64,000 nt of DNA from CBDFMG01 sp965221205 [NCBI: bacterium]. GTDB taxonomy: Bacteria; SM23-31. The notes beneath the pieces were generated by a model that was not told the DNA's origin, made no database searches, and worked only from the letters and a program-made list of their open reading frames with translations. Within the stretch, counting starts at the first letter, position 1, and each line of letters starts with the position of its first letter. The stretch lies in contig OZ244870.1 in NCBI GenBank assembly GCA_965221205.1, forward strand, positions 3,596,001-3,660,000, in the 5' to 3' direction. The position numbers and the translations under genes are program-made. This document shows positions 48,567-64,000 of this stretch, in pieces.

Positions 48567-49453
48567 AATGCCCCTCCTCGAATTAAGAGAAAATTTCTAC
48601 CGCTCACTAACGGTGAGCGGTAGAAATTCATAGTTTCCGTCCGGCAGAACCGTCGGAAGGTGGTACTCTGGATCTGTCAACAAGGTATAAACGTCGGGAT
48701 CCTGCTCCTGAACTTTCGCAGCGTTGTTTGATCTCCATTCGTTGTCAATCTGGTCCAAGCGCCAGTCAAAGTCCTGTGCACCGAGAATTGAGGTCAACGC
48801 CCAGTAGGTGTATTCAGTAATCATACAGCCGTAATCGCAGGTTATAGCATCATAGGTGAACCATGCACCTTCGGGATACTGTGAAGGAACCGATCTAAAA
48901 AATCCACCTCTGGCATTATCCATAGCATCTGCAACCTTGCTCCCGGGAAATTCTCCAAACACATTTGGGTAGACACGAGCATAACCGTGCTGGGTAATCA
49001 GATGGAGCACTTCCTCAAGTGTCGCATCGAACACTTCGTTTTCAGCACCATTCGGATGTGTTTCACTACCCCACAATCCCTGTCCCGGTCCGTCCGGAGC
49101 AGTGCCGAAATCAGCCCTGTCTAATTCACTTTCATTCGATGCCATAGCGATGAATGCATTTCTGCGAACAAGTTCATCGACCACATCCTGATTATTGACA
49201 ACCCCGTCTTCATCACTGTCGAGATACTCCGCCATTATGTTCGCTGCGTGCAGAATTTTATCATCCGGTGTTGCACTTGTGGCAATAACCAGAACACCAT
49301 GTACATCAACTTCTTTTGTGAAAGGAAGCCCCGATGTTCCTCCCGGATTTGTAATAACGTTCGAATTTGAATCGCTGCAGCTCATGCTCAGGACTGTCGA
49401 CGCGGCGAGAACTGGTATAAGCAGCTTCTTCATGGTACTTTCTCCATGGCAAT
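48516..49453. repeat. 938-bp tandem repeat, left copy
   Basis: This copy and 49454-50391 are directly adjacent and align without gaps at an offset of 938 bp, with scattered point differences. The unit contains one lipoprotein gene plus the ribosome site and first 17 codons of the left M24 gene. Confidence 0.9.
48597..49433 (-). CDS. EF-hand-like lipoprotein, duplicate A
   Basis: 278 residues from the ATG at 49433 (GGAGAAAG just upstream). A lipoprotein signal ends LSMSC, so the mature N-terminal Cys should be acylated. LDSDEDGVVNNQDVVDEL has the D-x-D-x-D-G spacing of a calcium-binding EF-hand/dockerin-type loop. Further on are LEEVLHLITQHGYARVYP, with E-x-x-H, and ITCDYGCMITEYTYWAL. The E-x-x-x-H region could be metal-binding, but I do not recognise a named family. 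The ATG overlaps the TGA of a 24-codon chimeric frame created by the tandem duplication. Confidence 0.8.
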   Translation of the reverse strand: MKKLLIPVLAASTVLSMSCSDSNSNVITNPGGTSGLPFTKEVDVHGVLVIATSATPDDKILHAANIMAEYLDSDEDGVVNNQDVVDELVRRNAFIAMASNESELDRADFGTAPDGPGQGLWGSETHPNGAENEVFDATLEEVLHLITQHGYARVYPNVFGEFPGSKVADAMDNARGGFFRSVPSQYPEGAWFTYDAITCDYGCMITEYTYWALTSILGAQDFDWRLDQIDNEWRSNNAAKVQEQDPDVYTLLTDPEYHLPTVLPDGNYEFLPLTVSER

Positions 49454-49504
49454 CATGAGAACAATCATTGAGAACACTGTAACAGCTAACCATTGCTTAC
49501 GCAT
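49430..49504 (-). pseudogene. Truncated M24 signal-peptide frame, coupled to lipoprotein A
   Basis: The right repeat unit carries the ribosome site and first 17 codons of the M24 gene (MRKQWLAVTVFSMIVLM). At the repeat junction these continue as IAMEKVP and end at TGA, which overlaps the lipoprotein start as ATGA. It is a by-product of the duplication, but may couple translation of the following lipoprotein. Confidence 0.6.
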
Positions 49505-50391
49505 AATGCCCCTCCTCGAATTAAGAGAAAATTTCTACCGCTCACTAACGATGAGTGGTAGAAATTCATAGTTTCCGTCCGGCAGAACCGTCGGAAGGTG
49601 GTACTCTGGATCTGTCAACAGGGTATAAACCTCGGGATCCTGCTCCTGAACTTTCGCAGCGTTGTTTGATCTCCATTCGTTGTCGATCTGGTCCAAGCGC
49701 CAGTCAAAGTCCTGTGCACCGAGAATTGAGGTCAACGCCCAGTAGGTGTATTCAGTAATCATACAGCCGTAATCGCAGGTTATATCATCATAGGTGAACC
49801 ATGCACCTTCGGGATACTGTGAAGGAACCGATCTAAAAAATCCACCTCTGGCATTATCCATAGCATCTGCAACCTTGCTCCCGGGAAATTCTCCAAACAC
49901 ATTTGGGTAGACACGAGCATAACCGTGCTGGGTAATCAGATGGAGCACTTCCTCAAGTGTCGCATCGAATACTTCGTTTTCAGCACCATTCGGATGTGTT
50001 TGACTACCCAACAATCCCTGTCCCGGTCCGTCCGGAGCAGTGCTGAAATCAGCCCTGTCTAATTCACTTTCATTCGATGCCATAGCGATGAATGCATTTC
50101 TGCGAACAAGTTCATCGACCACATCCTGATTATTGACAACCCCGTCTTCATCACTGTCGAGATACTCCGCCATTATGTTCGCTGCGTGCAGAATTTTATC
50201 ATCCGGTGTTGCACTTGTGGCAATAACCAGAACACCATGTACATCAACTTCTTTTGTGAAAGGAAGCCCCGATGTTCCTCCCGGATTTGTAATAACGTTC
50301 GAATTTGAATCGCTGCAGCTCATGCTCAGGACTGTCGACGCGGCGAGAACTGGTATAAGCAGCTTCTTCATGGTACTTTCTCCATGGCAAT
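49454..50391. repeat. 938-bp tandem repeat, right copy
   Basis: Second unit of the exact tandem duplication. The unique flank begins at GACGTTTGG after 50391; the left copy continues instead into the next repeat at the same place (after CCATGGCAAT), which fixes the boundary. Confidence 0.9.
49535..50371 (-). CDS. EF-hand-like lipoprotein, duplicate B
   Basis: A near-identical paralogue of the gene at 48597, also 278 residues with the LSMSC lipobox and the DSDEDG loop. Differences are few: for example GLLGSQTHP in place of GLWGSETHP, FSTAPD for FGTAPD, and YDDITC for YDAITC. This copy keeps the original upstream context next to the right-hand M24 gene, so it is probably the ancestral position. 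Confidence 0.8.
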   Translation of the reverse strand: MKKLLIPVLAASTVLSMSCSDSNSNVITNPGGTSGLPFTKEVDVHGVLVIATSATPDDKILHAANIMAEYLDSDEDGVVNNQDVVDELVRRNAFIAMASNESELDRADFSTAPDGPGQGLLGSQTHPNGAENEVFDATLEEVLHLITQHGYARVYPNVFGEFPGSKVADAMDNARGGFFRSVPSQYPEGAWFTYDDITCDYGCMITEYTYWALTSILGAQDFDWRLDQIDNEWRSNNAAKVQEQDPEVYTLLTDPEYHLPTVLPDGNYEFLPLIVSER

Positions 50392-50421
50392 GACGTTTGG
50401 TGACTTCCAATGTAGATGCCG

Positions 50422-51729: not shown

Positions 51730-52339
51730 GCCTGCTCCTCCATCAGATAATCTGATATGGTCGATTGATGTATGTGATAATAATTATTCGGGAGTGCTGA
51801 TTTTAAATACAAACTGATTAACTCCCGGGATTTTGCGATGTAGTAATGATGATAAATGTATCACGAATAGTCGATTGGCGGTTGCATCACTGTATGGAAA
51901 CGGATTATTTTTAAAGCTACTCTATAATACAAATAAAATCGTATAAACTTCAAGAAAACAATCAATAATCCGCTGCTTGTCTGCTTCAGATTATATGAAG
52001 ATTACACAAAGTTCCAATGTCATACTTAGTACATTATAACCATCCGAATCATTTTAAATAATCGCACATTGTCTAAGAAATTCCCTTTGAATGCGAGGCT
52101 TTAATGATGTATTATTCAACAATAATACGTTATAATTTATATTAGGATACTGAAACACCCGTATTAATTATTTAACTATTATTGTGACAGTTTTACGTAT
52201 TGTTGAAGCTACACAGGGCTTAACAGATACACAAAAGCAGTATTTCGTATTGTACGATTACTTCGATTGTTTCGTTTCGTATTGTAAGAATAGGATTTTT
52301 ATTCGGAAAGCAAGCTGTAAAAAATAAACCAAATTTTTT
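51730..52339. other. Intergenic region with short direct repeats
   Basis: About 600 bp without an intact gene. CGTATTGT occurs three times (52196, 52246, 52278), the last two inside a shared TTTCGTATTGTA. A loose inverted pair CGGGAGT/ACTCCCG lies at about 51790-51830. The M24 promoter should be near 51750-51800. The right part may be the decayed 5' end of the potassium-channel gene. Confidence 0.45.
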
Positions 52340-52562
52340 CAAAGGGGACTTTTATCTACCAAGCAACTCTAACACTACTCATTCTCTTCTGTGGTTCAAC
52401 ACTGCTCTTTTTTATTGAAAAAGATCCTAATGAAAGTATCAATACTTTTACTACCGTTGGATAGAAGATATTTATCCTGTTTGGGCTTGGTGTTGTTGCA
52501 TCTTTAACAGCTACTATTGCTGCATTTATACTGAGTCAGGGAGATGAAAAGCAGATCCGTTA
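52340..52562 (+). pseudogene. Potassium-channel pore-domain remnant
   Basis: The frame gives a membrane helix ATLTLLILFCGSTLLFFIEK, then FTTVG and, after a one-base shift, YEDIYPV, which together resemble the TVGYGD-x-x-P selectivity filter of two-helix pore channels. The second helix follows as LFGLGVVASLTATIAAFIL and the gene ends SQGDEKQIR. The pore helix before the filter is deleted and a stop interrupts the filter. Its last bases form the exact match to CRISPR spacer 1. Confidence 0.55.
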
Positions 52563-52571
52563 ATTCAAATA
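52540..52571 (+). other. Chromosomal protospacer identical to CRISPR spacer 1
   Basis: All 32 bases equal the first spacer (61737-61768), in the same orientation. The flanks are TCAG on the 5' side and GATA on the 3' side; identity extends one base each way by chance with the repeat ends. No CC next to the protospacer, the usual I-F PAM. Confidence 0.9.
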
Positions 52572-52608
52572 GATACATATATTAAATGAATAACCGGGGA
52601 AGGATGGC

Positions 52609-52818
52609 ATGTGTTTTTTCTCCAGTTTTATACCTGCCACAGTATTTGTGACAATTGGATATTTTGTTCTGTATTCTTCACACAAGGCAGAGGATCTGGC
52701 AATCTGGATATTTTTTATTGCACTCTTCTTTCCTATATGCGGCGCCTGCGTTACCATCAACGATCTTTGTCCCTTCGAAAACGAGACCCTAAGAATTGAA
52801 GTCGAATTAGAGCAGTAA
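52609..52818 (+). CDS. Small membrane protein of unknown function
   Basis: 69 residues with two hydrophobic helices (IPATVFVTIGYFVLYSS and LAIWIFFIALFFPICGACV) and an acidic tail. A purine-rich GGGGAAGGA lies before the ATG. No family recognised. It follows the channel remnant closely and could be a separate small gene or part of the same decayed locus. Confidence 0.4.
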   Translation: MCFFSSFIPATVFVTIGYFVLYSSHKAEDLAIWIFFIALFFPICGACVTINDLCPFENETLRIEVELEQ

Positions 52819-53119
52819 TCTCCTGCTCTCTCCTGTTAGTAATTTGTACTGTATTTCCATTGTGTTTACCCTGTAAACAATTACATTTCAAAGATTGCCA
52901 CATCGTTTCACTCCTTGCAATGACGCTTAGTGACATGAGATGGTGAAGAACATCCTCCCCGGCTTTTATGAGTTGTACACGATATAATTATTATAGTATT
53001 GATATCCTGAACTTGATTCAGGATCTCAAATCTGCTCCTCTTGCCATTCATACACAACCTTATTGCATAATGGGCTGCATTTTTGTATTTTAGAGCGCCA
53101 TTGATATGGGAATTACTGT
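52819..53119. other. Intergenic region upstream of the NtrC-type regulator
   Basis: About 300 bp, no gene seen. No sigma-54 (GG-N10-GC) promoter could be identified with confidence. Confidence 0.4.
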
Positions 53120-54499
53120 ATGACTAAGAAAGATACGCTGCTGATTGTCGATGACGAGAAGCACACTCTAAACGGTTTAAAAGAGATCATGTCCCAGGAG
53201 GGATACAAGGTCTTCACTGCCCTGTCAGCCGAGGATGGGATGGATCACCTGTCCAGGCAGGATATCGACCTTGTTATTACCGACCTGCAGCTCCCCGGTA
53301 TGGACGGCCTTGAACTTTCCAGAAATGTCCTCAAGGATTATCCCACTACACAAGTTGTCATTATCACCGCATTCGGCACCGTCGAGAGCGCCGTGCAGGC
53401 AATGAAAGACGGCGTATATAACTACATTACCAAACCGATCAAGAATATTGATGAGCTTCTCGTCGTCACGAAAAAAGCGCTCGACGAAAGCAGTATGAAG
53501 CGGGAAATCACCAATCTGAAATCGAAGATCACCACAAAGTACAGCATGAACAACATTATCGGTGTGTCGGGACCGATCGTGGAAGTTTTTGAGAAAGTGC
53601 TGAAAGTCGCCAAAACCAATTCGACCGTTCTGCTGCGCGGTGAAAGTGGCACCGGCAAGGAACTCATTGCCCATGCTATCCACGAACGCAGCAACCGGAA
53701 TAAAAAGCAATTTGTCGAGATCAACTGTTCAACTTTTCCTGATACACTTCTCGACAGCGAGCTTTTCGGGTATGAAAAGGGCGCTTTTACCGGGGCAGAT
53801 AAAACAAAACTCGGCAGGATCGAAGCTGCAGAAGGCGGGACGATTCTCCTCGATGAAATCGGCGATATCAATCCGGCTGTCCAGATGAAACTACTGCGGC
53901 TGCTGCAGGAAAAAACCTTTACGCGCCTCGGCAGCACTAAAACACAAACGGCAGATGTTCGGGTGATCGCGGCAACAAATGCAAATCTTGAGAATGCGAT
54001 CAAGAACGGTTCATTCCGGGAAGACCTGTACTACCGATTGAATGTGATCCCGATACTGCTTCCTCCCCTGCGGAAACGGAGGAACGATATCCCCCTGTTG
54101 ATCGACCATTTTATCAACAAATATACCGAAAAAAACAACCTCAAACGGATGAAAATATCGTCTGAGGCTATAGATTTACTGACCAATTATGCTTGGCCGG
54201 GCAATGTTCGTGAACTGGAAAATACAATTGAAAATTCCGTTGTAATGTGTGACAAAAAAACAATCGCTGTCAGTGACCTGCCGCAGTATTTGCATATCCG
54301 CGACATCAAAGGTACAAACGCTTCTTCCGTGCAGTTTCCTAAAGACGAACTCGATTATTCAACCCAGCTTGAGCTATCCGAGCGGCAGATCATCCAGAAA
54401 GCTCTTGAAAAAACCGATCACAATAGGACAAAGGCAGCCGAGCTGCTCGGCATCAGTCTCAGGACCATACGGTATAAAGTGAAAAAATATAATCTTTAG
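53120..54499 (+). CDS. NtrC-family sigma-54-dependent response regulator
   Basis: 459 residues in three domains. The receiver has LLIVDDEKHT, LVITDLQLPGMDG (phosphoacceptor Asp near residue 55) and the KPI lysine. The AAA+ domain shows GESGTGKELIAHAIH, the sigma-54 contact loop GAFTGA near residue 223, GGTILLDEIGD and AWPGNVRELEN. The C-terminal Fis-type HTH is RTKAAELLGISLRTIRYKV. It activates sigma-54 promoters on phosphorylation. Its partner kinase was probably the decayed gene on the opposite strand next door. Confidence 0.93.
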   Translation: MTKKDTLLIVDDEKHTLNGLKEIMSQEGYKVFTALSAEDGMDHLSRQDIDLVITDLQLPGMDGLELSRNVLKDYPTTQVVIITAFGTVESAVQAMKDGVYNYITKPIKNIDELLVVTKKALDESSMKREITNLKSKITTKYSMNNIIGVSGPIVEVFEKVLKVAKTNSTVLLRGESGTGKELIAHAIHERSNRNKKQFVEINCSTFPDTLLDSELFGYEKGAFTGADKTKLGRIEAAEGGTILLDEIGDINPAVQMKLLRLLQEKTFTRLGSTKTQTADVRVIAATNANLENAIKNGSFREDLYYRLNVIPILLPPLRKRRNDIPLLIDHFINKYTEKNNLKRMKISSEAIDLLTNYAWPGNVRELENTIENSVVMCDKKTIAVSDLPQYLHIRDIKGTNASSVQFPKDELDYSTQLELSERQIIQKALEKTDHNRTKAAELLGISLRTIRYKVKKYNL

Positions 54500-54513
54500 A
54501 ACCGGCTGCGTTT

Positions 54514-54800
54514 TCAGTTCAGCAGTAATGCTTCTTCCACTTTCTGCTTCAAGAGGCTCATATCCGAAGATTTCACCACATATGCCGATGCAGGCCAGGT
54601 AAAAAAATCTTCCTGATGTATCAGATATGCTGTGTTGAGAATCACGGATGTGTTTCGCGCAGACGATTTAATTTCGTTCATTGCTTCTATGCCGCCCAAT
54701 CGCAGTATACGAGTGTATCCATGATTATAAGATCAGGCTTGATTTTTGCACCTTTGTAATAGCCTCTTTACCGGCCTTGGCTAAAACCGCTTTAAACCCA
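54514..54800 (-). pseudogene. Response-regulator receiver fragment
   Basis: The minus-strand frame 54514-54699 reads GGIEAMNEIKSSARNTSVIL and AYVVKSSDMSLLKQKVEEAL, the second half of a receiver with the Lys of the K-P/S motif. Further upstream another frame has KPDLIIMDT, the phosphoacceptor strand. A small indel near 54,700 separates them, and the start is missing. Confidence 0.6.
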
Positions 54801-55240
54801 TTAGTAGTCGGTCGGCAAATATATTTCAAACGCCGTTCCTTTGCGGTATTTACTGCGCGCCTCACTATATCCACCGTGGACTTTCATAATCTGCTGCCTG
54901 ATCGGCAGCCACCCACAACCCGGTCCATTCGATTTCGTTGCGTAGAACGGCTGAAAGAGATATTCCATGTCTTTTTTTCTGATACCTATATCGGTATTTT
55001 TGATTGTTGCGACTGCAAAACCGTTATTGCGGCGGAAACCTACCAACACTTTGCCACCTTTTGGCATTGCATGTATACAATTACGCATAATATTCAGGAA
55101 CACCTCTGTAATCTGATTCGGATCAACATAGAGAATACAAACCGCATCTTCAAAATTCAGGTTTAGCCCACCGGTCGTCATAAGAAATCCCAATCGACCC
55201 TTCGTACACTTTAAGCGTGGTAATTAAATCGTTTGCTTGT
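54801..55240 (-). pseudogene. Sensor histidine kinase remnant, ATPase domain
   Basis: The minus strand encodes DPNQITEVFLNIMRNCIHAM (N box), then TDIGIRKKDMEYLFQPFYAT (G1/F boxes), GPGCGWLPIRQQIMKVHGG (a damaged G2 box) and KGTAFEIYLPTDY. Only fragments of the phosphoacceptor helix region remain upstream, where frames read ANDLITTLKVYEGSI. It probably belonged with the NtrC-type regulator or with the receiver fragment just downstream. Confidence 0.65.
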
Positions 55241-55464
55241 CTCTTTGTAAACCTCATTATTTTTTGTTGCGAGGTAAAAGCTTCTTGTTTATTGTTAAGT
55301 CTTTTTTTCACTTTTTTCAAAAAAATTTGATTATATTTGCGGAGTGCTCAGTCTTAAAGGCTATATTATATTAAAAGAACATATAAACTGCATGCTGATG
55401 AATCTTATACATTAATATTAACAAATTTTTGTCGAGTAAAACTCCCACATGAGGTGTCAGTAAA

Positions 55465-55974
55465 TTGATAAGCAATCCGAAAATTTATTCTTTTTCTCTG
55501 TTTGAGGCAGGTTATGCATCAATCCACTCACTCATCAGGGATTTATTTGATTCACCGAACAATGTATGCCCATCATTATCTCAGGGTGATTTATTATATG
55601 TTCTTTCAAAAGTTCCGCCTGCCAGGCCTCTGCATCATAGTTCTCAGGAAGCCGTGTCTGTCAATAAAAACACCAAAAAAGTGAAATTGGAGACCCATGT
55701 TGCTTTTTGCAATAGACACAGAGAAAATATCATTCCCGAAAAAATTTATCCCGACAAGGCCTTGGAAAAATTCTGTCTTCTTTCTGGTATTGAAAAAGAT
55801 TTAGCAAACTGTTGGTTCCTTGGCCCTCATAGTGAAAAGAAATTTAACATTCATAATGCATTTTGTACTCAGGGGGTATTTAATATTTTGGATCACAACA
55901 AATTCAATCAAGCATTAACAAATGGAGTGGGATCGAGAAGATCTTATGGGTATGGACTTATTTTATTAAAGTAA
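55465..55974 (+). CDS. cas6: CRISPR-associated endoribonuclease Cas6 (Cas6e-like)
   Basis: Cas6 cuts the repeat RNA and stays on the crRNA 3' hairpin. The 169-residue protein ends in NGVGSRRSYGYGLILL, the glycine-rich loop that defines RAMP/Cas6 proteins; the preceding GVFNILDHNKFNQALT is closest to Cas6e. His21 in SIHSLIRDLF is where Cas6e has its catalytic His. Start is TTG at 55465 with GAGGTG upstream. It is the first gene of a tightly packed operon (12 bp to cas7). The approximately 230-bp upstream is AT-rich and must contain the operon promoter. Confidence 0.85.
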   Translation: MISNPKIYSFSLFEAGYASIHSLIRDLFDSPNNVCPSLSQGDLLYVLSKVPPARPLHHSSQEAVSVNKNTKKVKLETHVAFCNRHRENIIPEKIYPDKALEKFCLLSGIEKDLANCWFLGPHSEKKFNIHNAFCTQGVFNILDHNKFNQALTNGVGSRRSYGYGLILLK

Positions 55975-55985
55975 GGAGAAAAACT

Positions 55986-56888
55986 ATGAGTCAAGAAATT
56001 AAATCTATTACGTTTGAAGGAGATTTAGAGGTGTGGGGCATTTACAACTATAACGGACCGGAAGAAAGATATGATGCTCAAACGAATAAAAGATATAAAA
56101 ATCACACTCGTGCAAAAACATTTAAAATCAATAATAAAGAAATTGATTATACATCTTCACGCTGTTTGAGGCATGAAATATTTAAAGACCTGCAGCCACG
56201 GCAGCCCTCAAACAAAGATTTTGGTGATCAATTTATAAAAATGGCGGCTTCAGAAGTTGGTCTGCTTAGAGGCTATTTGTCTCCTGATGATAGCCTGAAC
56301 AGACTTTCTCCTTTGCATATAGCGGATGCTCGAACAATAGATGAAACACCGCTTATTGTCTTTGATCAAGGCTCAAGCTCAAAGCCGAAAGAAAAAAGTG
56401 ATACTAAAAGTGATACTTCCATGTTTTCAAAGGATAATGCTCCCTATAGAACGCAAAAATTGTTCGGAGGCATCAACCTGAAAGAACTTCAATTTTTATC
56501 TCTGTACGATCTTGATAATGACTTTTCAATGATTGCAAAAAAAGACAGTAAAAAATTTACAGAACTTCTAACAGAATATTTTAAAGAACGCAATGTGGAT
56601 CATGCTCTTGCGATAAAGAAGTATGTTGATATTGGCGCAGTTTATAGAAACGAAAGAGAGGGAATACTGTTAAATCAGGAGCAAATTCGCCATTTGGTGA
56701 GAGTTGTGTTTCAAAGAATTAAAATGATACGTGGCTTGAAGGCGGGATCTAGGCTGGCCTACAAAAAAAACACCTTAGAGGTTTCTTTTTTTGATGGAGA
56801 AGATTCACAAGATGTAAAGGAATCCAACTTAAAAGAAGCATTAGAAGGCAAATCCATGAATTTTTACAGCTTTTTTAAAGAAGTTTAA
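55986..56888 (+). CDS. cas7: CRISPR Cascade backbone protein Cas7 (I-Fv-like)
   Basis: Cas7 polymerises along the crRNA spacer in type I effector complexes. The 300-residue protein shows YNYNGPEERYD (residues 20-30), SSRCLRHEIF near 58, VGLLRGYLSPDDSLNRLSPL near 93, and LKELQFLSLYDLD near 165. These blocks agree with what I recall of Cas7fv, the backbone of the minimal I-Fv (I-F2) complex of Shewanella putrefaciens; this is memory, not an alignment. A good ribosome site (AAGGAG) precedes the ATG. No Cas8 or Cas11 gene accompanies it. Confidence 0.8.
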   Translation: MSQEIKSITFEGDLEVWGIYNYNGPEERYDAQTNKRYKNHTRAKTFKINNKEIDYTSSRCLRHEIFKDLQPRQPSNKDFGDQFIKMAASEVGLLRGYLSPDDSLNRLSPLHIADARTIDETPLIVFDQGSSSKPKEKSDTKSDTSMFSKDNAPYRTQKLFGGINLKELQFLSLYDLDNDFSMIAKKDSKKFTELLTEYFKERNVDHALAIKKYVDIGAVYRNEREGILLNQEQIRHLVRVVFQRIKMIRGLKAGSRLAYKKNTLEVSFFDGEDSQDVKESNLKEALEGKSMNFYSFFKEV

Positions 56889-56896
56889 TCTTAATC

Positions 56897-58006
56897 ATGC
56901 CTTATATAAAATTAAACGTTAGCTCTGGCGGCATTTATATAAAAAGAGACACAAAGAACAATTGTATAAAAAGAGAGTTAATTTCCCATCCAGAACCTCC
57001 AGAAGACAACAAAAATCAAAAAGTTTTGGGCATTGTAAGAGAAAGCTCAATAAAGGGTTTATTTTCCTATTTGATGGGGGAGACAAAAAAGCTGAAGGTA
57101 ATAGAAGAGAGCTCAGACTCTTCAGTCAAAAAACTTAATTCAACTTTAGATATGATTGTTAAGGTATCTGCGTATAAAAGAGAGTCGGAGCTTTACATCA
57201 CAACTTTTTTTGAACTGAGAGGATATCCTAAGGTCAAATCTAAGATTATATACCAACCTAAAATTCATCTTTCTCAGCATACTTTTGAAACAGCTAATGC
57301 AACAATAAAATTATTGAAAAAACCATTAAAAAATATATTTGAAACAGAATGCCTTGGTGAAATTAACAAAAAGATTGAAGATAGTAAGGTTAAAGAAAAG
57401 GATTCTACATATAATGATTTACACCCTCCGAATTGCGAGAATATACCAGAATCAAAACTTGGAACAAAAATGAAAAATTATTTTATCGAGAGAACAAAAG
57501 AAAGTAAACCTATTTATCAGAAGACCATAGAAATCATCGATGAAGTCAACTCCCTTTGTGCAGAAGACTTGAATTTTAAAAGGAAACTTGAAAAATCCAA
57601 CTACGAGCGATTTAGCACCTTCACTGATCCACAACATACAAAGAGTTGGGTTGATGAGAAGTATTACCCTGTTGTGCGAGGAGCTCCAGCTTTTATTGCC
57701 TGTACTGATTTTGATATTTACCTTTCAGAGGGAGCTTTTGAAGGAACTCACAATTCTGACCATTTTAATTGGGAAGAAATTATACAAAAAATTCAAAATG
57801 GACCAAACATCGCCAGATGGGGAGAAGGAGGAATTGTTCGAGTGAAGTATCATCTCGATGAAATGGGCTGTCCCTACGAACAAAAAGATCATACGATGAA
57901 TCAACTTTTTGCGGAAATAAAAGACTTAAGAAAGTCAGGAATAAAAATAGTGCTCTATGACTGGGAAAAGACAGATGAGAAAGAAAAAAGCAAAAATAAG
58001 GAATAA
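56897..58006 (+). CDS. Putative Cas5 / large-subunit-replacing Cascade protein
   Basis: A 369-residue protein placed where Cas5 is expected, 8 bp after cas7 and overlapping cas3 by 50 bp. I see no motif that identifies Cas5 with certainty. It is basic, has a strand-rich start (MPYIKLNVSSGGIYIKRD), an internal charged helical region around 150-260, and a C-terminal part VRVKYHLDEMGCPYEQK. In I-Fv systems Cas5fv carries an extra domain that takes over PAM reading and target opening from the missing Cas8; its unusual length here would allow that. The call is by position and size. Confidence 0.6.
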   Translation: MPYIKLNVSSGGIYIKRDTKNNCIKRELISHPEPPEDNKNQKVLGIVRESSIKGLFSYLMGETKKLKVIEESSDSSVKKLNSTLDMIVKVSAYKRESELYITTFFELRGYPKVKSKIIYQPKIHLSQHTFETANATIKLLKKPLKNIFETECLGEINKKIEDSKVKEKDSTYNDLHPPNCENIPESKLGTKMKNYFIERTKESKPIYQKTIEIIDEVNSLCAEDLNFKRKLEKSNYERFSTFTDPQHTKSWVDEKYYPVVRGAPAFIACTDFDIYLSEGAFEGTHNSDHFNWEEIIQKIQNGPNIARWGEGGIVRVKYHLDEMGCPYEQKDHTMNQLFAEIKDLRKSGIKIVLYDWEKTDEKEKSKNKE

Positions 58007-60491
58007 AAATTTCTTCCTGGCCAATACGGGCAAACAGCCTTTAAAAGAGCATTCCATTGCCGCAGCGCTCTATGGATATAAATTATTACAATCCTTAAAA
58101 TTTAAACCCCGTATAGAAGAGAAAATAAGCAAATATCTGATTTATTCTGCTTTGCTGCATGACATAGGGAAAGTTTCAGACAGCTTTCAAAAATATATCA
58201 AAGAGAAAGCCGAGATTGACAATGCAGAAGATATGCCAAGAGATGCCGAATGCTCTAGACCAAAAACATTTAAAGGTCCCTTTCACAATGAAATTTCATG
58301 GGCCTATGCAGGAAACTTCTTTCTATTTGATAACAGAGAGACTCGAGAAACTGTTCGCCACTCTATTTATTGGCATCATCCTGCAAACTTTGATGATAAA
58401 GAAGATAGGTTGTGCTTTGAAAATTCTCAAACAATTTTTGAATCCGAAGAAGAAAATACAACAGATCTGCTCAAAAAGATACATGAATTTGTTGATGATC
58501 TTCGCGACTCTTTCTTCTCTGATTATGGACGTGATTTTAATTGGCAAAATAATCCTTTAGAGAAACCATGTGAGGATACGATTGAAGCAATCCAATGTCC
58601 TAAATTTTTCTCCCATGAACCGTGTGAAACTAAAAATAATGGTTATAAACAGCTATGCTTGAATTTATTGCTGGAGTCAGACAGAACCGTTTCCTCATGG
58701 AAGCCTAAGGAGTTAGATGATTTTTTAAAGAACTGGAAAGATGAAAAACTTTGTTTAAATCAAAGAGACAAATCCCCTGTTTTAGAAAATGTAGACAGCA
58801 GTAAAAAAAGCAAAGAGCAGTACGATCTGGCAAACAAAATGGCAAGCAAAAAATTATCAGTTTGCGGGGTAGATCCAGCAGGAGGAAAAACCAGTGTGGC
58901 CCTTTATTGGTGGAGTTTTTCCAATAATGAATATCCTTTTATGATCGCTCTTCCAAAACAGCAGCAGGTGGTAGGTTTAGTAGATTCTTTACAAGAGGAC
59001 TGTAAAAGAATCTATGGGGATAAAAAGCTAAAAATGGAAGCTGTTTTTAATGGAAAAAGACAGTTTAAAAGCTGGGAACCGCCAGAAGATAATTCAGATC
59101 TTTTAATTTCTGATATTAACATTTTGGTTTTTGACAGGTTTTTAAGCCCTTACTATAAAAGAAGCCAATCTTCCGAGTTTCTTACAATGCTTCGCTCCCA
59201 TTTGGTTCTTGATGAATTTCATGAATTTAGAGACCTTCCAACAATGATACCTTCTTTGAAAGAGGTGCTGACTATCAGAAGTTGGCTTGATTCTGGAGTG
59301 AAAACTCTTATGTTAAGCGGCACACCGGAGCCTTCTCTTCTAAAACTGTTACATATTGAAGATATTACAGACAAGAGCAAAGTTTTTAAAAGAACAGAAC
59401 TGTCCCCAAGAGGGAATCATAAATTTAAGATGTTTGCAGAAGAGAAAAATTTAGAAGAAGTCCACAAATTTCTTTCTGATTGTTTATACTCTTTTTTAAG
59501 AGTAGCAGATTGCCAGAAAGCATTTTCTCATTTTTTAAAAATTTATAAAGATACAATCAAAATGATACATTCTTATTTTACTGCTGACGATAAACAAGAT
59601 TTATTGAAGAACATTTTAAAAGAACATGGCAAAGATGCTGTCCCATCTGCAAGTGAAAAATCGGTTATCGCATCAAAAATGCTTCAGTCTTCTTATAACG
59701 TGAACTTTGATAAGGCCATTGTGGAATTGTCGCAGCCTTACATGGATTGTCAGACGGCTGGAAGAATCAACAGGTTTGAAAATAAACCCAATGCAGAAAT
59801 GCGCTTTTTTTATAATAAAAAATCAGAAGAATTTTTCAATAAAAACAAAGCAGGATTTAAGGAGATTCACAAGAAATGGAAAGAGCATATTGTATCTTTT
59901 ATTAATGAGCAAAAAGGACAGGCCGTCTCTATCAGAAAATTAATGGAATCGTATGATAACTTTTGGAATGAAAATAATGTCAATGAATCCTTAAAAATCT
60001 TAAAAGAACGGCATAAGGAGGCCATTGAGGAATTAAACGAATACACTCCCAAAAGACTTTCTCCAGGAAAAAAGAAGAAAACATCTTCTCGTCTTAATAG
60101 CTTGTTTAGAGGCGAGTCCCGCTATTTAAGCGCTTGTGTTGTGGATGATAATGGAAACGCAATAGATCAATTGCATGATGAAAATTTACTAAGTGAAGGT
60201 CGTCGTTACGTTATAGACAAAATAAAAAAAGCCATGGAAGTTTGTTTAAAAACAAATAAACAATGCGATCGTGCCAATAAAATCAAGGATCAGGAGGAAT
60301 TTGAATATAATAAATATGCCCATGCCTTTGGCTTTAAAACAGAAAGACCGTTGCTCTCTTCTCATTTCAACCGAGACATTGATAAATGTCTTAAAGAACA
60401 ACTTTCTGACGAAGATAGTAAGCAAACAGAACACCGAGTGTATAATAAGAAATTTGGATTGGTTAAAAAGAGTTTATTAGAAAATGGATAA
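57957..60491 (+). CDS. cas3: CRISPR-associated nuclease-helicase Cas3, without fused Cas2
   Basis: 844 residues. The N-terminal HD nuclease has KEHSIAAALYG (His31 region), LLHDIGKVSDSFQKY, FHNEISWAYAG and YWHHPANF. The SF2 helicase follows: motif I DPAGGKTSVALYWW near residue 305, motif II LDEFHEF near 419, motif III SGTPEP near 455, and motif VI DCQTAGRINRFEN near 598. Typical I-F proteins start with a Cas2 domain; here the HD domain starts at once, so it is a plain HD-helicase. An ATG six codons on (57975) is an alternative start. It overlaps cas5 and cas1. Confidence 0.92.
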   Translation: MTGKRQMRKKKAKIRNKNFFLANTGKQPLKEHSIAAALYGYKLLQSLKFKPRIEEKISKYLIYSALLHDIGKVSDSFQKYIKEKAEIDNAEDMPRDAECSRPKTFKGPFHNEISWAYAGNFFLFDNRETRETVRHSIYWHHPANFDDKEDRLCFENSQTIFESEEENTTDLLKKIHEFVDDLRDSFFSDYGRDFNWQNNPLEKPCEDTIEAIQCPKFFSHEPCETKNNGYKQLCLNLLLESDRTVSSWKPKELDDFLKNWKDEKLCLNQRDKSPVLENVDSSKKSKEQYDLANKMASKKLSVCGVDPAGGKTSVALYWWSFSNNEYPFMIALPKQQQVVGLVDSLQEDCKRIYGDKKLKMEAVFNGKRQFKSWEPPEDNSDLLISDINILVFDRFLSPYYKRSQSSEFLTMLRSHLVLDEFHEFRDLPTMIPSLKEVLTIRSWLDSGVKTLMLSGTPEPSLLKLLHIEDITDKSKVFKRTELSPRGNHKFKMFAEEKNLEEVHKFLSDCLYSFLRVADCQKAFSHFLKIYKDTIKMIHSYFTADDKQDLLKNILKEHGKDAVPSASEKSVIASKMLQSSYNVNFDKAIVELSQPYMDCQTAGRINRFENKPNAEMRFFYNKKSEEFFNKNKAGFKEIHKKWKEHIVSFINEQKGQAVSIRKLMESYDNFWNENNVNESLKILKERHKEAIEELNEYTPKRLSPGKKKKTSSRLNSLFRGESRYLSACVVDDNGNAIDQLHDENLLSEGRRYVIDKIKKAMEVCLKTNKQCDRANKIKDQEEFEYNKYAHAFGFKTERPLLSSHFNRDIDKCLKEQLSDEDSKQTEHRVYNKKFGLVKKSLLENG

Positions 60492-61356
60492 GCAAAAAAA
60501 TCATATAAGGATTGATGAAGTTCAGCCCTTGATTCCTCTTTCAAGAAGAGTGCCTTTTTATTATACAGAATACAGTAAAATTAAAAGAAAAGGTAATGAC
60601 ATAAGGATTTTAAAAGCTGATTTACAAGAAGAGTATTCCCTTCCTGTTTGTGGAATTGGAGGATTGTTTTTAGGCCCTGGCACAAGCATTACATCAGAAT
60701 CCATGAGAATTATATCGTCAAGAGGCTGCTTAATAGGAGTAATGGGCGGTAATGCTGCGCCGCTTTATCTATGCTCTACACAGCACAGGTCACCATTACC
60801 TCGTATTAGACAGCATAACATTATATTTAACGAGGCTAAAAGAATATCTGCTGCAAAAGTTCTTTTCGATAAGAGGAAATTATTTATCAATACATTCTCC
60901 AACGTAACGTTGCCTCAGTTTCCTTCTTATAAAGATGGCGATACAATAAACACTCTTTTATCAAAAGAAGGAGCGTGGGCCAGAGAGGCATACAAAGCTT
61001 TATCTGTTCAATATGACATTCCTTTTTTTAAAAGAGGAAAAGCTTTTAGAGGCAGGAAAGACCCTTTGACATTTTTAAATTTTCTATCTTATTCCATAGC
61101 AGATTTGACTATTTTACACTTAGGTTATGATCCTAATATCGGCGTGCTTCATGGAAGAACCAAGGGGGGAGGTTTGTCGTATGATCTCGCAGATGTTGTA
61201 AAGCCTGTCATTGCTTTAAATCTGTCATTTGTTGCTCTCAAAGAGGAATGGAGTCTAAAAGAAATCAAGAATCATTTTATGAAATTAACTTTAGAAATAG
61301 ATGTTTTAAATTACTTGAACAAGACATTAAATGAGATTTTCAGGAAGGATAATTGA
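60484..61356 (+). CDS. cas1: CRISPR adaptation integrase Cas1 (I-F-like)
   Basis: Cas1 with Cas2 inserts new spacers. The 290-residue protein has RRVPFYYTEYSKI, FLGPGTSITSESMRI and GGNAAPLY in the N-terminal domain, all in the pattern of I-F Cas1. In the catalytic domain it has LLSKEGAWAREAYKAL (metal-ligand Glu), GVLHGRTKGGGLSYDLADVV (His and the late Asp). It is somewhat shorter than usual I-F Cas1. It overlaps cas3 by 8 bp and abuts cas2, so all three are translationally coupled. Confidence 0.92.
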   Translation: MDKQKNHIRIDEVQPLIPLSRRVPFYYTEYSKIKRKGNDIRILKADLQEEYSLPVCGIGGLFLGPGTSITSESMRIISSRGCLIGVMGGNAAPLYLCSTQHRSPLPRIRQHNIIFNEAKRISAAKVLFDKRKLFINTFSNVTLPQFPSYKDGDTINTLLSKEGAWAREAYKALSVQYDIPFFKRGKAFRGRKDPLTFLNFLSYSIADLTILHLGYDPNIGVLHGRTKGGGLSYDLADVVKPVIALNLSFVALKEEWSLKEIKNHFMKLTLEIDVLNYLNKTLNEIFRKDN

Positions 61357-61647
61357 ATGGTTGTCATAATAAATGATTGTCTGAAAGAAAAAAGTGACAA
61401 AGCTCGTGCTATTATTGGGCGGTATTGCTGGCGGATAGCCAAGGATGTGTGGGTGTGGCAAAAAGACGGCATTAGAGAGGATATTGTAAAGGAGTTAAGA
61501 AAGATCGATGCAGATTTCAGAGTGGTTTTTATATGGTCTGACCGTACTCACCATCTGGGATTTCGTTCATTTGTTTTTGGCGATTTGAAAAGCCGTCAGA
61601 CTGATGAAGGGATATTCAATCATTTATTAGGTATCAATCTCAATTAA
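61357..61647 (+). CDS. cas2: Stand-alone Cas2, resembling the Cas2 domain of I-F Cas2/3
   Basis: 96 residues immediately after cas1, with AAGGATAA before the ATG. The order of elements VVIINDCLKEKSDKARAII, IREDIVKELRKIDADFRVV and FIWSDRTHHLGFRSFVFGD recalls the N-terminal Cas2 domain of I-F Cas2/3 (a Cys after the first strand, the long helix, then a W-x-R segment). It is here an independent gene. Alternative: another small adaptation factor. It ends 61 bp before the first repeat. Confidence 0.75.
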   Translation: MVVIINDCLKEKSDKARAIIGRYCWRIAKDVWVWQKDGIREDIVKELRKIDADFRVVFIWSDRTHHLGFRSFVFGDLKSRQTDEGIFNHLLGINLN

Positions 61648-61708
61648 ATCATTACGTGTTTGAGTGTTTGTTTGAGTGTTTGATAGTACAGGTATATTTA
61701 TTTTATGG
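61648..61708 (+). promoter_or_regulatory. CRISPR leader with a 12-bp tandem repeat
   Basis: The 61 bp between cas2 and the first repeat is AT-rich and contains GTTTGAGTGTTT twice in direct succession (61658-61669 and 61670-61681). The side is judged leader-proximal because it borders cas1-cas2 and because repeat degeneration lies at the other end. It may hold the array promoter and adaptation anchor site. Confidence 0.6.
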
Positions 61709-62886
61709 GTTGCGCCCGTGCGCGGGCGGTAGAAAGGGAGATGAAAAGCAGATCCGTTAATTCAAATAGTTGCGCCCGTGCGCGGGCGGTAGAAAGATAA
61801 ATCTGATTGTTTCGCAGGAAATATCCTCGTTGCGCCCGTGCGCGGGCGGTAGAAAGGGGGATAAAGATAGATTTTTTTCCTTCTCAGAGTTGCGCCCGTG
61901 CGCGGGCGGTAGAAAGCTCAACGGCCGGTCGTCCCAGTCTTGTTCATGGTTGCGCCCGTGCGCGGGCGGTAGGCGGTAGAAAGAGCAGGAATATATGTAT
62001 ATAGATATATACTCAGTTGCGCCCGTGCGCGGGCGGTAGAAAGGGGTTGCCAGACTGGCCTTTTAGAAATTGTCCGTTGCGCCCGTGCGCGGGCGGTAGA
62101 AAGAAACTATCCTGATTTCCACGCACATATTACACGTTGCGCCCGTGCGCGGGCGGTAGAAAGCAATATTGATTATCAAAATTTGTTTGCTCTTTGTTGC
62201 GCCCGTGCGCGGGCGGTAGACGGGCGGTAGAAAGGAAAGCATATCCCGTCATGAAAGAAGCGGCAGGTTGCGCCCGTGCGCGGGCGGTAGAAAGAAGAAA
62301 GGAGCAATAGAATTCAATAAAACAAGGTTGCGCCCGTGCGCGGGCGGTAGAAAGCGCGGCTTGGTGTCGAGCTTGGTGCTGATCCGGTTGCGCCCGTGCG
62401 CGGGCGGCGGGCGGTAGAAAGATGAAGCGGGGGGGGGGTCGAATAACCCAAACTAGTTGCGCCCGTGCGCGGGCGGTAGAAAGGTGTGGATGGGGTTAAA
62501 GAGACTAATAAGTTTGTTGCGCCCGTGCGCGGGCGGTAGACGGGCGGTAGAACGGGCGGTAGAAAGGTATGTTGTTCGGGGGAGTTGTTTTGGGCATCGT
62601 TGCGCCCGTGCGCGGGCGGTAGAAAGAGTGAGATGGGGTTGTAGTATTTGGTTTTTGTGTTGCGCCCGTGCGCGGGCGGTAGAAAGTTGAGTACCACACT
62701 CATTGCCTTCTGATCCCCGTTGCGCCCGTGCGCGGGCGGTAGAAAGTTGGTATATAGCTGAGAACAGGTAGTCGCCCAGTTGCGCCCGTGCGCGGGCGGT
62801 AGCGGGCATCTATCATTCACTTACTTCATGTGCGCCTCGTTGCGCCCGTGCGCGGGCGGTAGCGGGCGGTAGCGGGCGGTAGAAAG
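61709..62886 (+). CRISPR. CRISPR array, 19 repeats and 18 spacers, with length-variant repeats
   Basis: The standard repeat is 28 nt: GTTG, the hairpin CGCCCG-TGCG-CGGGCG, then GTAGAAAG. Spacers are 32 nt except spacer 12 (34 nt, with a G-run). Standard repeats give an exact 60-bp period from 61709. Repeats 5 (61949), 9 (62196), 12 (62387), 14 (62516) and 19 (62839) are 35, 39, 35, 51 and 48 nt because part of their 3' half (CGGGCGGTAG and similar) is reiterated. Repeat 18 (62779) ends CGGG instead of AAAG. Spacer 1 matches 52540-52571 in this window; the others match nothing I could find here. Confidence 0.97.
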
Positions 62887-63031
62887 TGAAGCAACTGATC
62901 GTCAGTTGTGACAATCTGCTCAAAGGCACTCCCCACCTGAGTCCGGAAAACAGCGGTGGTGTGCATAGATTGAGAACATTGGCAGAATCAAAGTTGACAA
63001 ACTAACAAACCGACAAGGAAGGAGACACACT

Positions 63032-64000
63032 ATGAAACATTTTAAGCCAACATCGGGCGGTTTGGTGTATGGAAAACGCAGCACCCGTACAGAAGTTGAA
63101 GCGGTCGAACAGACTGCATGGACGGACACGTGGCATCCTATAACGCATCGCCAGTGCATAGCAAGCTTTGATACTGCCCTTGACACGCTTGGATTAAAAA
63201 AGCTCAAAGAAACATATTCAATGAGTAATGGCGGCGGTCAAGCATACGGCATGATTATCGTACAGGACGGAAACAACGGAGTCGATATTAAAAACACTCC
63301 ACTCAAAACGATAGTATGGCGTAACTCCGTTGACAAATCCGTTTCTTTTGGTATGACAAGCGCCACAACGATTTTCCAGTGTGAAAATCTCGCTTTGTTC
63401 TCTTCATTTAATGAGGTTTCGGCATTTCGTAAGCATACAAAGCGGCTTGACGGCAACACGCTAAATGAAATAGTCGCTAACAACGTGCGACACTTTACTG
63501 AGAAGGCAAGCCGAGACATAAACTATCATCGTAGCTTTGCGGATGTTCCGTTGAGTGATGATAGAGTGAGACGGTTGGCTTATGATGCTATCACACGGGG
63601 CGTTATAAGTCGTCGGAAGATCAGCGAGTTTAACCGTATATTGTTTTCGGCGAGTCGTGAGTACAACCCGTCTAATCTGTATGGGTTCCACGGGGCTTGT
63701 ACCCAAACCATGCGGGAGATGAGAATGACCGGCAGTTTTGTCGACAAGCAAAAGGAACTGAGCAAGATGGTTGTTGAAGCCAAATCCCAGCATGAAATAT
63801 ACGACAACGTGCGACACTTTACTGAGAAGGCAAGCCGAGACATAAACTATCATCGTAGCTTTGCGGATGTTCCGTTGAGTGATGATAAAGTGAGACGGTT
63901 GGCTTATGATGCTATCACACGGGGCGTTATAAGTCGTCGGAAGATCAGCGAGTTTAACCGTATATTGTTTTCGGCAAGTCGTGAGTACAACCCGTCTAAT
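63032..64000 (+). CDS. DUF932-like phage/plasmid protein, open at the window edge
   Basis: An uninterrupted frame of 323 codons runs from the ATG at 63032 (AAGGAG 8 nt upstream) to the end of the window. It starts MKHFKPTSGGLVYGKRSTRT and has AYGMIIVQDGNNGVDI, VWRNSVDKSVSFGMTSATTI and FRKHTKRLDG, consistent with DUF932 proteins, which are carried by phages and plasmids and have no firm function. From residue 150 an in-frame segment repeats: NNVRHFTEKASRDINYHRSF recurs 108 residues later. The plus-strand coding is the convincing one; the minus-strand frames here are shadows. Confidence 0.75.
   Translation, partial: MKHFKPTSGGLVYGKRSTRTEVEAVEQTAWTDTWHPITHRQCIASFDTALDTLGLKKLKETYSMSNGGGQAYGMIIVQDGNNGVDIKNTPLKTIVWRNSVDKSVSFGMTSATTIFQCENLALFSSFNEVSAFRKHTKRLDGNTLNEIVANNVRHFTEKASRDINYHRSFADVPLSDDRVRRLAYDAITRGVISRRKISEFNRILFSASREYNPSNLYGFHGACTQTMREMRMTGSFVDKQKELSKMVVEAKSQHEIYDNVRHFTEKASRDINYHRSFADVPLSDDKVRRLAYDAITRGVISRRKISEFNRILFSASREYNPSN
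63480..64000. repeat. In-frame 324-bp direct duplication within the DUF932-like gene
   Basis: 63480-63803 and 63804 onward match almost base for base at an offset of 324 bp (108 codons). Differences I see include GATAGAGTG against GATAAAGTG (Arg to Lys) and a silent GCG/GCA. The second copy is cut by the window edge, so more copies may follow. Confidence 0.9.

What the first reader, a model, noticed from the sequence alone, without database searches (positions are those of the whole stretch)
52540..61768. Leader-proximal spacer targets the host's own chromosome perfectly
Spacer 1 (61737-61768) equals 52540-52571 in 32 of 32 bases, in the end of a decayed potassium-channel gene 9 kb upstream. 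As the presumed newest spacer it suggests acquisition from self DNA. The cell must tolerate it through a wrong PAM (5' flank AG rather than CC), inactive interference, or an inhibitor.
Basis: seen in the sequence. Interest (0 to 1): 0.85.

Follow-up and report, generated by a model that had tools for sequence, protein, structure and literature searches.

The report
Newest CRISPR spacer matches own chromosome
A bacterium's most recently added CRISPR memory is an exact copy of a piece of its own chromosome nine kilobases away, probably captured by mistake and tolerated because the flanking bases do not license attack; such self-matches are known, but the compact CRISPR system that holds this one looks like a rare variant.

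Summary
Spacer 1 (61737-61768) equals 52540-52571 in 32 of 32 bases; no other place in the window lies within 6 substitutions, and none of the other 17 spacers has a place within 9 mismatches in the window. 61709 is the leader end: the leader motif recurs in a relative, L001, from a Bdellovibrionales MAG.

Likeliest reading: the locus's own Cas1-Cas2 captured self DNA close to the array, and the spacer is tolerated because its target lacks an interference-competent PAM. No CC lies within 3 bases of the 5' end, no GG within 3 of the 3' end. A tested parallel exists in a type I-F strain (PMC3630108, passages). This system's own PAM is unknown, so tolerance is inferred.

Self-targeting spacers are well known. 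Less ordinary is the locus: Cas6e-like, Cas7fv-like, an unassigned protein, stand-alone Cas3, Cas1, stand-alone Cas2, no recognised Cas8 or Cas11. Its Cas7 was found in 1 of 368 Bdellovibrionota genomes, that of L001 itself. Cas1 groups with the five type I-F Cas1 proteins in a 14-row tree (95/93). It resembles type I-F2 but fails several of that subtype's defining tests.

The parts
52540..52571 (+). self protospacer; 5' flank TGAGTCAG, 3' flank GATACATA
   Evidence: 32/32 identity with spacer 1; flanks
52336..52563 (+). 75-codon remnant with one in-frame stop that ends inside the protospacer (channel-like, identity weak)
   Evidence: translation; Pfam Lig_chan E=0.08 only
55465..55974 (+). 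Cas6-like, 169 aa; C-terminal part Cas6e-like
   Evidence: PF08798 36.2 bits over cut-off 25; TIGR01907 23.7 bits under cut-off 45.2; PADLOC Cas6/Cas6e, then type IV Cas6
55986..56888 (+). Cas7fv-like backbone, 300 aa
   Evidence: NF040577 E=3.7e-30, 105.3 bits, under cut-off 200; PADLOC Cas7fv 92.1 vs Cas7f 66.3 bits; PDB Cas7fv 5o6u E=2.9e-14
56897..58006 (+). unassigned protein, 369 aa, in the place and of the size of Cas5fv
   Evidence: position after Cas7 as in I-Fv records; no family over cut-off; hhalign against Cas5fv negative
57957..60491 (+). Cas3, HD nuclease plus helicase, 844 aa, no Cas2 domain found
   Evidence: PADLOC Cas3fv 170.5 bits, next Cas3b 84.1; HD, GGKT, DEFH, SGTP, QTAGRINR motifs in window and L001
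60484..61356 (+). Cas1, 290 aa
   Evidence: TIGR00287 97.4 bits over cut-off 71.7; tree: with I-F Cas1, 95/93
61357..61647 (+). stand-alone Cas2, 96 aa, subtype unsure
   Evidence: PF09707 (I-E) E=0.007 and the I-F Cas2 domain PF21384 E=0.052, both under cut-off; PADLOC Cas2 E=0.0016
61648..61708 (+). leader; CAGGTATATTTA..TATGG before repeat 1 is shared with L001
61709..61736 (+). repeat 1, GTTGCGCCCGTGCGCGGGCGGTAGAAAG
61737..61768 (+). spacer 1 (newest), the self-matching spacer
61709..62887 (+). CRISPR array: 19 repeats, 18 spacers; 6 of 19 repeats altered at the 3' stem arm or tail

Best explanation
Spacer 1 is a genuine self-derived spacer. The locus's own Cas1-Cas2 captured a 32-base fragment of the chromosome about 9 kb upstream of the array and inserted it at the leader end (shown: the match, the order, the leader end; inferred: the act). 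The cell survives because the target is not flanked by a PAM that licenses the effector. The effector is most like type I-F2 (I-Fv), which needs two G-C pairs beside the protospacer at a fixed side; this target lacks them there, so Cas3 is not recruited (inferred). Survivor bias explains why the one self spacer seen is a PAM-less one: self spacers with a good PAM would kill their cell. The crRNA has the sense of the remnant gene, so it cannot pair with that gene's mRNA; silencing at the RNA level is not expected.
For: Exact match, unique in the window. Leader end conserved with L001. cas1 and cas2 open and constrained against L001 (cas1 dN/dS 0.13; cas2 dN 0.09 with saturated dS). 5' dinucleotides at slips -3 to +3 are GT, TC, CA, AG, GG, GG, GA and 3' ones AT, TA, AG, GA, AT, TA, AC: no CC before, no GG after. 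Effector nearest to I-Fv: Cas7 and Cas3. In S. putrefaciens I-Fv, targets with AG, GA, AA or CC in place of the GG at the 3' end of the target strand were not attacked (PMC4605320, passages). A native I-F spacer of P. atrosepticum with a 100% chromosomal match and a TG PAM is tolerated, while an engineered spacer with GG against the same gene is toxic (PMC3630108, passages). In E. [quoted passage not shown]
Against: The PAM of this locus is unknown; no usable protospacer for another spacer was found. The protein that should read the PAM (56897-58006) could not be shown to be a Cas5fv: hhalign negative, two AlphaFold2 models at mean pLDDT 33 and 31. In P. atrosepticum a GG lies within 3 bases of the PAM place for 99.5-99.7% of acquired spacers (PMC5059440, passages), so if CC were the acquisition motif here this capture would itself be a rare error. 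At slips +1 and +2 the 5' dinucleotide is GG; if this locus read GG on that strand, a slipped PAM would be present. One self spacer is one event, and its 9 kb distance is subject to what a 64 kb window can show.
Confidence: 0.55

Rival explanations
1. The flank AG is a proper acquisition motif of this locus (as AWG or AG are for type I-E) and tolerance comes from elsewhere: weak expression, repair, or an inhibitor.
For: All 18 spacers are preceded by G; in L001 the oldest repeat ends in T while the two others end in G, which would fit a G brought in with the spacer as in type I-E; I-E PAMs include AG and AWG (PMC8482600, passages); Cas6 looks I-E-like and Cas2 weakly so.
Against: The repeat itself ends in AAAG, so an AG or AAG PAM would license attack on the array; repeat and PAM disagree in over 98% of combinations except at position -1 of I-E and I-C (PMC8482600). 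In two I-Fv arrays the last base is a fixed repeat base: G in 86 of 86 repeats of L005, A in 85 of 85 of L006. Cas1 groups with I-F, not I-E (95/93).
Confidence: 0.15
2. Interference is off in this strain: the array can still gain spacers but the effector is silent or blocked (unexpressed operon, anti-CRISPR, or a host factor).
For: A perfect self match would otherwise be costly; its presence in an assembled consensus suggests no strong cost (inference).
Against: All six genes open, Cas3 motifs intact, dN/dS 0.13 to 0.29 against L001 for the five computable genes. No inhibitor gene was sought, and expression cannot be seen from sequence.
Confidence: 0.15
3. The spacer came from a mobile element that carried the same sequence, and the chromosomal copy is an old insertion of it.
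For: The region 52-53 kb is AT-rich (35% GC against 44-50% in the kilobases on either side) and decayed.
Against: A 20-mer of spacer 1 has no exact match in IMG/VR; the remnant peptide has no hit in plasmids and one hit at E = 0.4 in phages; the neighbours (peptidases, response regulator) look chromosomal (judgement).
Confidence: 0.08
4. Assembly artefact: array and target come from different replicons or organisms joined in error, so the spacer targets a neighbour, not self.
For: No genome or reads are held; the cas operon is AT-rich (33-36% GC) beside 44-48% at 53-55 kb; a truncated histidine kinase (54801-55193, minus) abuts the operon.
Against: A wrong join cannot create a 32-base match; the shift in composition is as expected for a horizontally gained operon, and 41-45 kb of the same window is as AT-rich (30-38%); L001 shows the same operon in another genome.
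Confidence: 0.07

Closest known systems
Tolerated native self-targeting spacer of Pectobacterium atrosepticum type I-F (CRISPR2 spacer 6 against eca0560; PMC3630108, passages)
   Same: 100% match of a native spacer to the own chromosome; flank is not the consensus PAM; cas genes intact
   Different: There the PAM was known and tested, the spacer is sixth from the leader and the target lies in an integrated element; here the PAM is unknown, the spacer is first and the target is a decayed stretch near the array
Type I-F2 (I-Fv) CRISPR-Cas, Shewanella putrefaciens CN-32 and Acinetobacter plasmids
   Same: No recognised Cas8 or Cas11; Cas7 and Cas3 nearest to Cas7fv and Cas3fv; 28-base repeats with hairpin and 8-base 3' tail, 32-base spacers
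   Different: Cas2 is free instead of fused to Cas3, gene order differs, Cas6 is Cas6e-like not Cas6f, Cas7 scores about half the Cas7fv cut-off, Cas5fv not recognised
Type IV-A1 self-targeting spacer against pilN in Pseudomonas oleovorans (natural CRISPRi; passage in PMC12714560)
   Same: A spacer against the own chromosome is kept
   Different: Type IV-A silences without a nuclease; here a Cas3 with intact motifs is present and the target is the tail of a decayed gene, so regulation is unlikely

Membership tests
Self-targeting spacer | A spacer in a CRISPR array matches DNA of the same genome outside the array | tested here: met
   32/32 on the same contig; other parts of the genome not held
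Self-targeting spacer | The target has a PAM for the host's own effector (autoimmune) or lacks it (tolerated) | tested here: inconclusive
   No CC before and no GG after within 3 bases, but the PAM of this system is unknown
CRISPR-Cas type I-F2 (I-Fv) | Cas7fv | tested here: not met
   NF040577 105.3 bits against cut-off 200, E=3.7e-30: related, outside the curated family
CRISPR-Cas type I-F2 (I-Fv) | Cas5fv | tested here: inconclusive
   No family over cut-off; hhalign with two Acinetobacter Cas5fv negative; first 80 residues z 2.4 to 2.9 for the window protein but -0.4 to 0.3 for L001, whole length not above shuffles
CRISPR-Cas type I-F2 (I-Fv) | Cas6f | tested here: not met
   Cas6e-like C-terminus; no similarity to two Acinetobacter Cas6f
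CRISPR-Cas type I-F2 (I-Fv) | Cas2-Cas3 fusion | tested here: not met
   HD domain starts near residue 30 of the 844-aa Cas3; free Cas2 of 96 aa
CRISPR-Cas type I-F2 (I-Fv) | No Cas8 and no Cas11 | tested here: met
   No Cas8 or Cas11 model among the hits shown for the six proteins; no further ORF of 80 aa or more outside them between 55465 and 61647 on the + strand. The ORF behind the array (63032-64000) has a Csa5 hit at E=0.057, under cut-off. A Cas11 made from an internal start was not tested
CRISPR-Cas type I-F2 (I-Fv) | GG PAM at the 3' end of the target strand (CC before the protospacer on the spacer-like strand) | not testable with these tools
   No usable protospacer of another spacer
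CRISPR-Cas type I-E | Cas8e, Cas11, Cas7e | tested here: not met
   None among the hits shown
CRISPR-Cas type I-E | Cas1e | tested here: not met
   TIGR03638 101.7 bits against cut-off 215.6; tree puts it with I-F, 95/93
CRISPR-Cas type I-E | Cas6e | tested here: not met
   TIGR01907 23.7 bits against cut-off 45.2, although the broader PF08798 is over cut-off

The most novel reading that the evidence does not exclude
The locus is an unnamed, Cas8-less branch of the type I-F lineage with unfused Cas2 and Cas3 and a Cas6e-like processing enzyme, perhaps close to the state before Cas2 and Cas3 were fused, or a later mosaic of I-E and I-F2 parts. Its newest spacer records self capture near the array, and the pair of array and target is a ready natural test of how this branch tells self from non-self.
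Probability: 0.5. Interest if true: 0.55.

Novelty: new variant of a known kind. Interest (0 to 1): 0.42.

Why it matters
A perfect, newest self spacer in a cell with seemingly intact cas genes is a natural test of what the effector needs besides the match. For a compact Cas8-less effector of unknown PAM, this one target gives a concrete prediction (flank CAG is not cut) that one plasmid assay can test. If confirmed, it adds a case to the view that self capture happens near the array and that only PAM-less captures persist.

Tried and rejected
PAM from targets. The whole array was compared with phages (the same search shown twice: 165 records, 40 and 60 rows seen; all rows seen but one hit array bases 336-371 at E = 4, the other, a Serratia phage, hit 654-683 at E = 1) and with plasmids (9 records, best E = 0.03, a stretch that includes repeat bases). 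I first took the phage row as pure chance. E = 4 means chance is not excluded, and with 5 mismatches the phage is not the source, so its flank gives no PAM. 20-base stretches of spacers 1, 2, 4, 6 and 9 and a degenerate pattern read from spacer 17 were scanned exactly in IMG/VR: 0 of 6 found. The other 12 spacers were not scanned there. The two spacers of L001 have no second copy in its genome at up to 3 mismatches. Arrays of two Acinetobacter I-Fv plasmids against phages (24 and 3 records) gave rows that I took for repeat or cas6 similarity and did not follow.

Cas5 identity. Two AlphaFold2 jobs gave no usable model, so no fold search was made. Cas1: I first read it as I-E-like from profile scores (I-E 101.7 against I-F 100.6 bits); BLAST (best 108 bits, a I-F Cas1, against 90 for the best I-E row seen) and the tree put it with I-F. 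A PAM-derived last G of the repeat, as in I-E, was considered; the uniform last base in two I-Fv arrays makes it the weaker reading.

More relatives. Cas7 alone and the Cas7 pair gave none in IMG/VR; genome contigs gave 1 (a single-protein query, which finds close relatives only); plasmids gave only I-Fv at 27-29% identity, 4 of 72,556 records.

Tree rows. Of 135 plasmid records with a Cas1 hit, 40 were shown; I fetched 10 of these 40, chosen by me for spread, and used L005 (also among the 40) and L006 besides. The 14 rows are the window, L001, 5 I-F, 6 I-E and 1 I-B; no row was dropped. The I-B row is very long.
Full report
The match. Spacer 1, 61737-61768, is GGAGATGAAAAGCAGATCCGTTAATTCAAATA and equals 52540-52571 in 32 of 32 bases on the same strand; no other place in the window lies within 6 substitutions. 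None of the other 17 spacers, nor the 2 spacers of the relative L001, has a place within 9 mismatches outside the arrays in the window or L001, while 200 shuffled 32-mers reached 9 to 14 mismatches at best (for the twelfth spacer the last 32 of 34 bases were used). Chance is excluded. The target ends 9,138 bases before repeat 1.

Which end is new. The cas genes run towards the array. Between cas2 and repeat 1 lies a 61-base AT-rich stretch; its last part, CAGGTATATTTA..TATGG, recurs directly before repeat 1 of L001. The last two repeats at the far end are altered.

The locus. Six genes run 55465-61647: a Cas6 with a Cas6e-like C-terminus (PF08798, 36.2 bits over the cut-off of 25; TIGR01907 below cut-off); a Cas7 nearest to Cas7fv (105.3 bits, about half of the cut-off; PADLOC Cas7fv 92.1 against Cas7f 66.3 bits; solved Cas7fv at E = 2.9e-14); a 369-residue protein without family in the place of Cas5; Cas3 with HD and helicase (PADLOC Cas3fv 170.5 bits, next Cas3b 84.1; in plasmids 4 records answer at E up to 1e-5, the same four that carry Cas7fv); Cas1; and a free Cas2 (weak hits to I-E Cas2, E = 0.007, and to the I-F Cas2 domain, E = 0.052). 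No Cas8 or Cas11 model answers among the hits shown for these six. The operon has 33-36% GC where 45-52 and 53-55 kb have 44-50%, which suggests gain from outside; but 41-45 kb and 52-53 kb are as AT-rich.

Relatives. One relative was found in genome contigs: L001, a Bdellovibrionales MAG (JAPPLY010000028.1), with the same six genes in the same order and a 3-repeat array of GTTTCGCCCGCATGCGGGCGGTAGAAAG. Protein identities run from 54% (the unassigned one) to 83% (Cas2); dN/dS is 0.13 to 0.29 for five genes, with dS saturated for cas2. A profile of the two Cas7 proteins found 1 of 368 genomes of that phylum, that of L001 itself. IMG/VR gave none. In a tree of 14 Cas1 proteins the pair groups with the five type I-F proteins and apart from the six I-E proteins (95/93; the I-B row is very long and the root is by midpoint). 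Behind the oldest repeat of L001 stands a lone repeat that I know, from recall, as type I-E-like; it is the only copy in that genome at up to 3 mismatches.

Is it type I-F2? It works like one as far as sequence shows: few genes, no large subunit, Cas7fv-like and Cas3fv-like proteins, 28-base hairpin repeats with an 8-base 3' tail and 32-base spacers as in an Acinetobacter I-Fv array. It is not filed as a member: Cas2 is not fused to Cas3, Cas6 is not Cas6f, Cas7 is under the cut-off, and Cas5fv is not recognised. The 2025 classification mentions a I-F variant between I-F1 and I-F2 in a figure that is not held (PMC12669027, passages); I cannot exclude that this is the same. In the rows listed by literature searches (titles, starts of abstracts) I saw no paper on this gene set.

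Why the cell lives. In S. [quoted passage not shown] AG, GA, AA or CC in place of GG stopped interference (PMC4605320, passages). Here the 5' flank is TGAGTCAG and the 3' flank GATACATA. No CC lies at slips of -3 to +3 on the 5' side and no GG on the 3' side, so neither a canonical, a slipped nor a flipped I-F PAM is present. In P. atrosepticum, a native spacer with a 100% chromosomal match is harmless because its PAM is TG, and an engineered spacer with GG against the same gene is toxic (PMC3630108, passages). By analogy the self target here is not cut. Shown: sequences and flanks. Inferred: the PAM need, because the PAM of this locus and the identity of its PAM reader are unknown.

Results against. 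If CC were the acquisition motif, this capture would be odd, since 99.5-99.7% of spacers in P. atrosepticum have GG within 3 bases of the PAM place (PMC5059440, passages); survivor bias can explain it, but so can a different motif. At slips +1 and +2 the 5' dinucleotide is GG, which would be a slipped PAM if this locus read GG on that strand. Every spacer follows a G, and L001's oldest repeat ends in T where the others end in G, which would fit a PAM-derived G as in I-E; against this, the last base is uniform within two I-Fv arrays (86 of 86 G, 85 of 85 A), and a repeat that ends in AAAG would itself carry an AG or AAG PAM.

The rest of the array. It looks like ordinary antiviral memory as far as one weak case goes: spacer 6 matches a DUF5681 gene of Felix O1-like phages in 27 of 32 bases, in frame, with 9 of 10 residues alike. 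BLAST gives E = 4, so this is a lead only; I had first set it aside as chance.

Why this place. In E. [quoted passage not shown] A self spacer from 9 kb upstream fits this, but only 64 kb could be searched, so distance is suggestive, not a test.

How usual. Self-targeting spacers made up 0.4% of spacers and were seen in 18% of CRISPR-bearing genomes in one survey, and in about 7% of genomes of another database (PMC6990116, section 4 read). The phenomenon is known; the interest lies in the locus and in the clean natural test it offers.

Noticed in passing
61709-62887: 6 of 19 repeats are altered near the 3' end: five carry inserts of 7 to 23 bases that repeat CGGGCGGTAG-like units (61949, 62196, 62387, 62516, 62839), and 62779 ends in CGGG in place of AAAG. 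Spacers stay 32 bases except one of 34 with a run of ten G. Slippage at the hairpin, perhaps in gap filling after spacer insertion, or sequencing error.
   Followed up: partly
62044-62075: Spacer 6 matches a DUF5681 gene of Felix O1-like phages in 27 of 32 bases, and its reverse strand reads GQFLKGQSGN against GQFKKGQSGN in the phage; E = 4, so a lead to the kind of target, not proof.
   Followed up: partly
L001:8765-8792: The oldest repeat of the relative's array runs straight into a lone type I-E-like repeat (label recalled), the only copy in that genome at up to 3 mismatches: a possible trace of a I-E array replaced by or joined to this system.
   Followed up: partly
63032-64000: ORF with under-cut-off hits only (V_ATPase_I 24.4 bits, DUF932 E = 0.016) that holds a 197-base direct repeat, 324 bases apart and 99% alike, at the window's end.
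   Followed up: no
54801-55193: Fragment of a histidine kinase on the minus strand (HATPase domain) beside an intact sigma-54 response regulator; the cas operon begins just after it, so it may mark the left edge of an insertion or deletion.
   Followed up: no
48597-50410: Two nearly identical neighbouring genes of unknown function between two similar genes, one of them an M24-type peptidase by Pfam.
   Followed up: no
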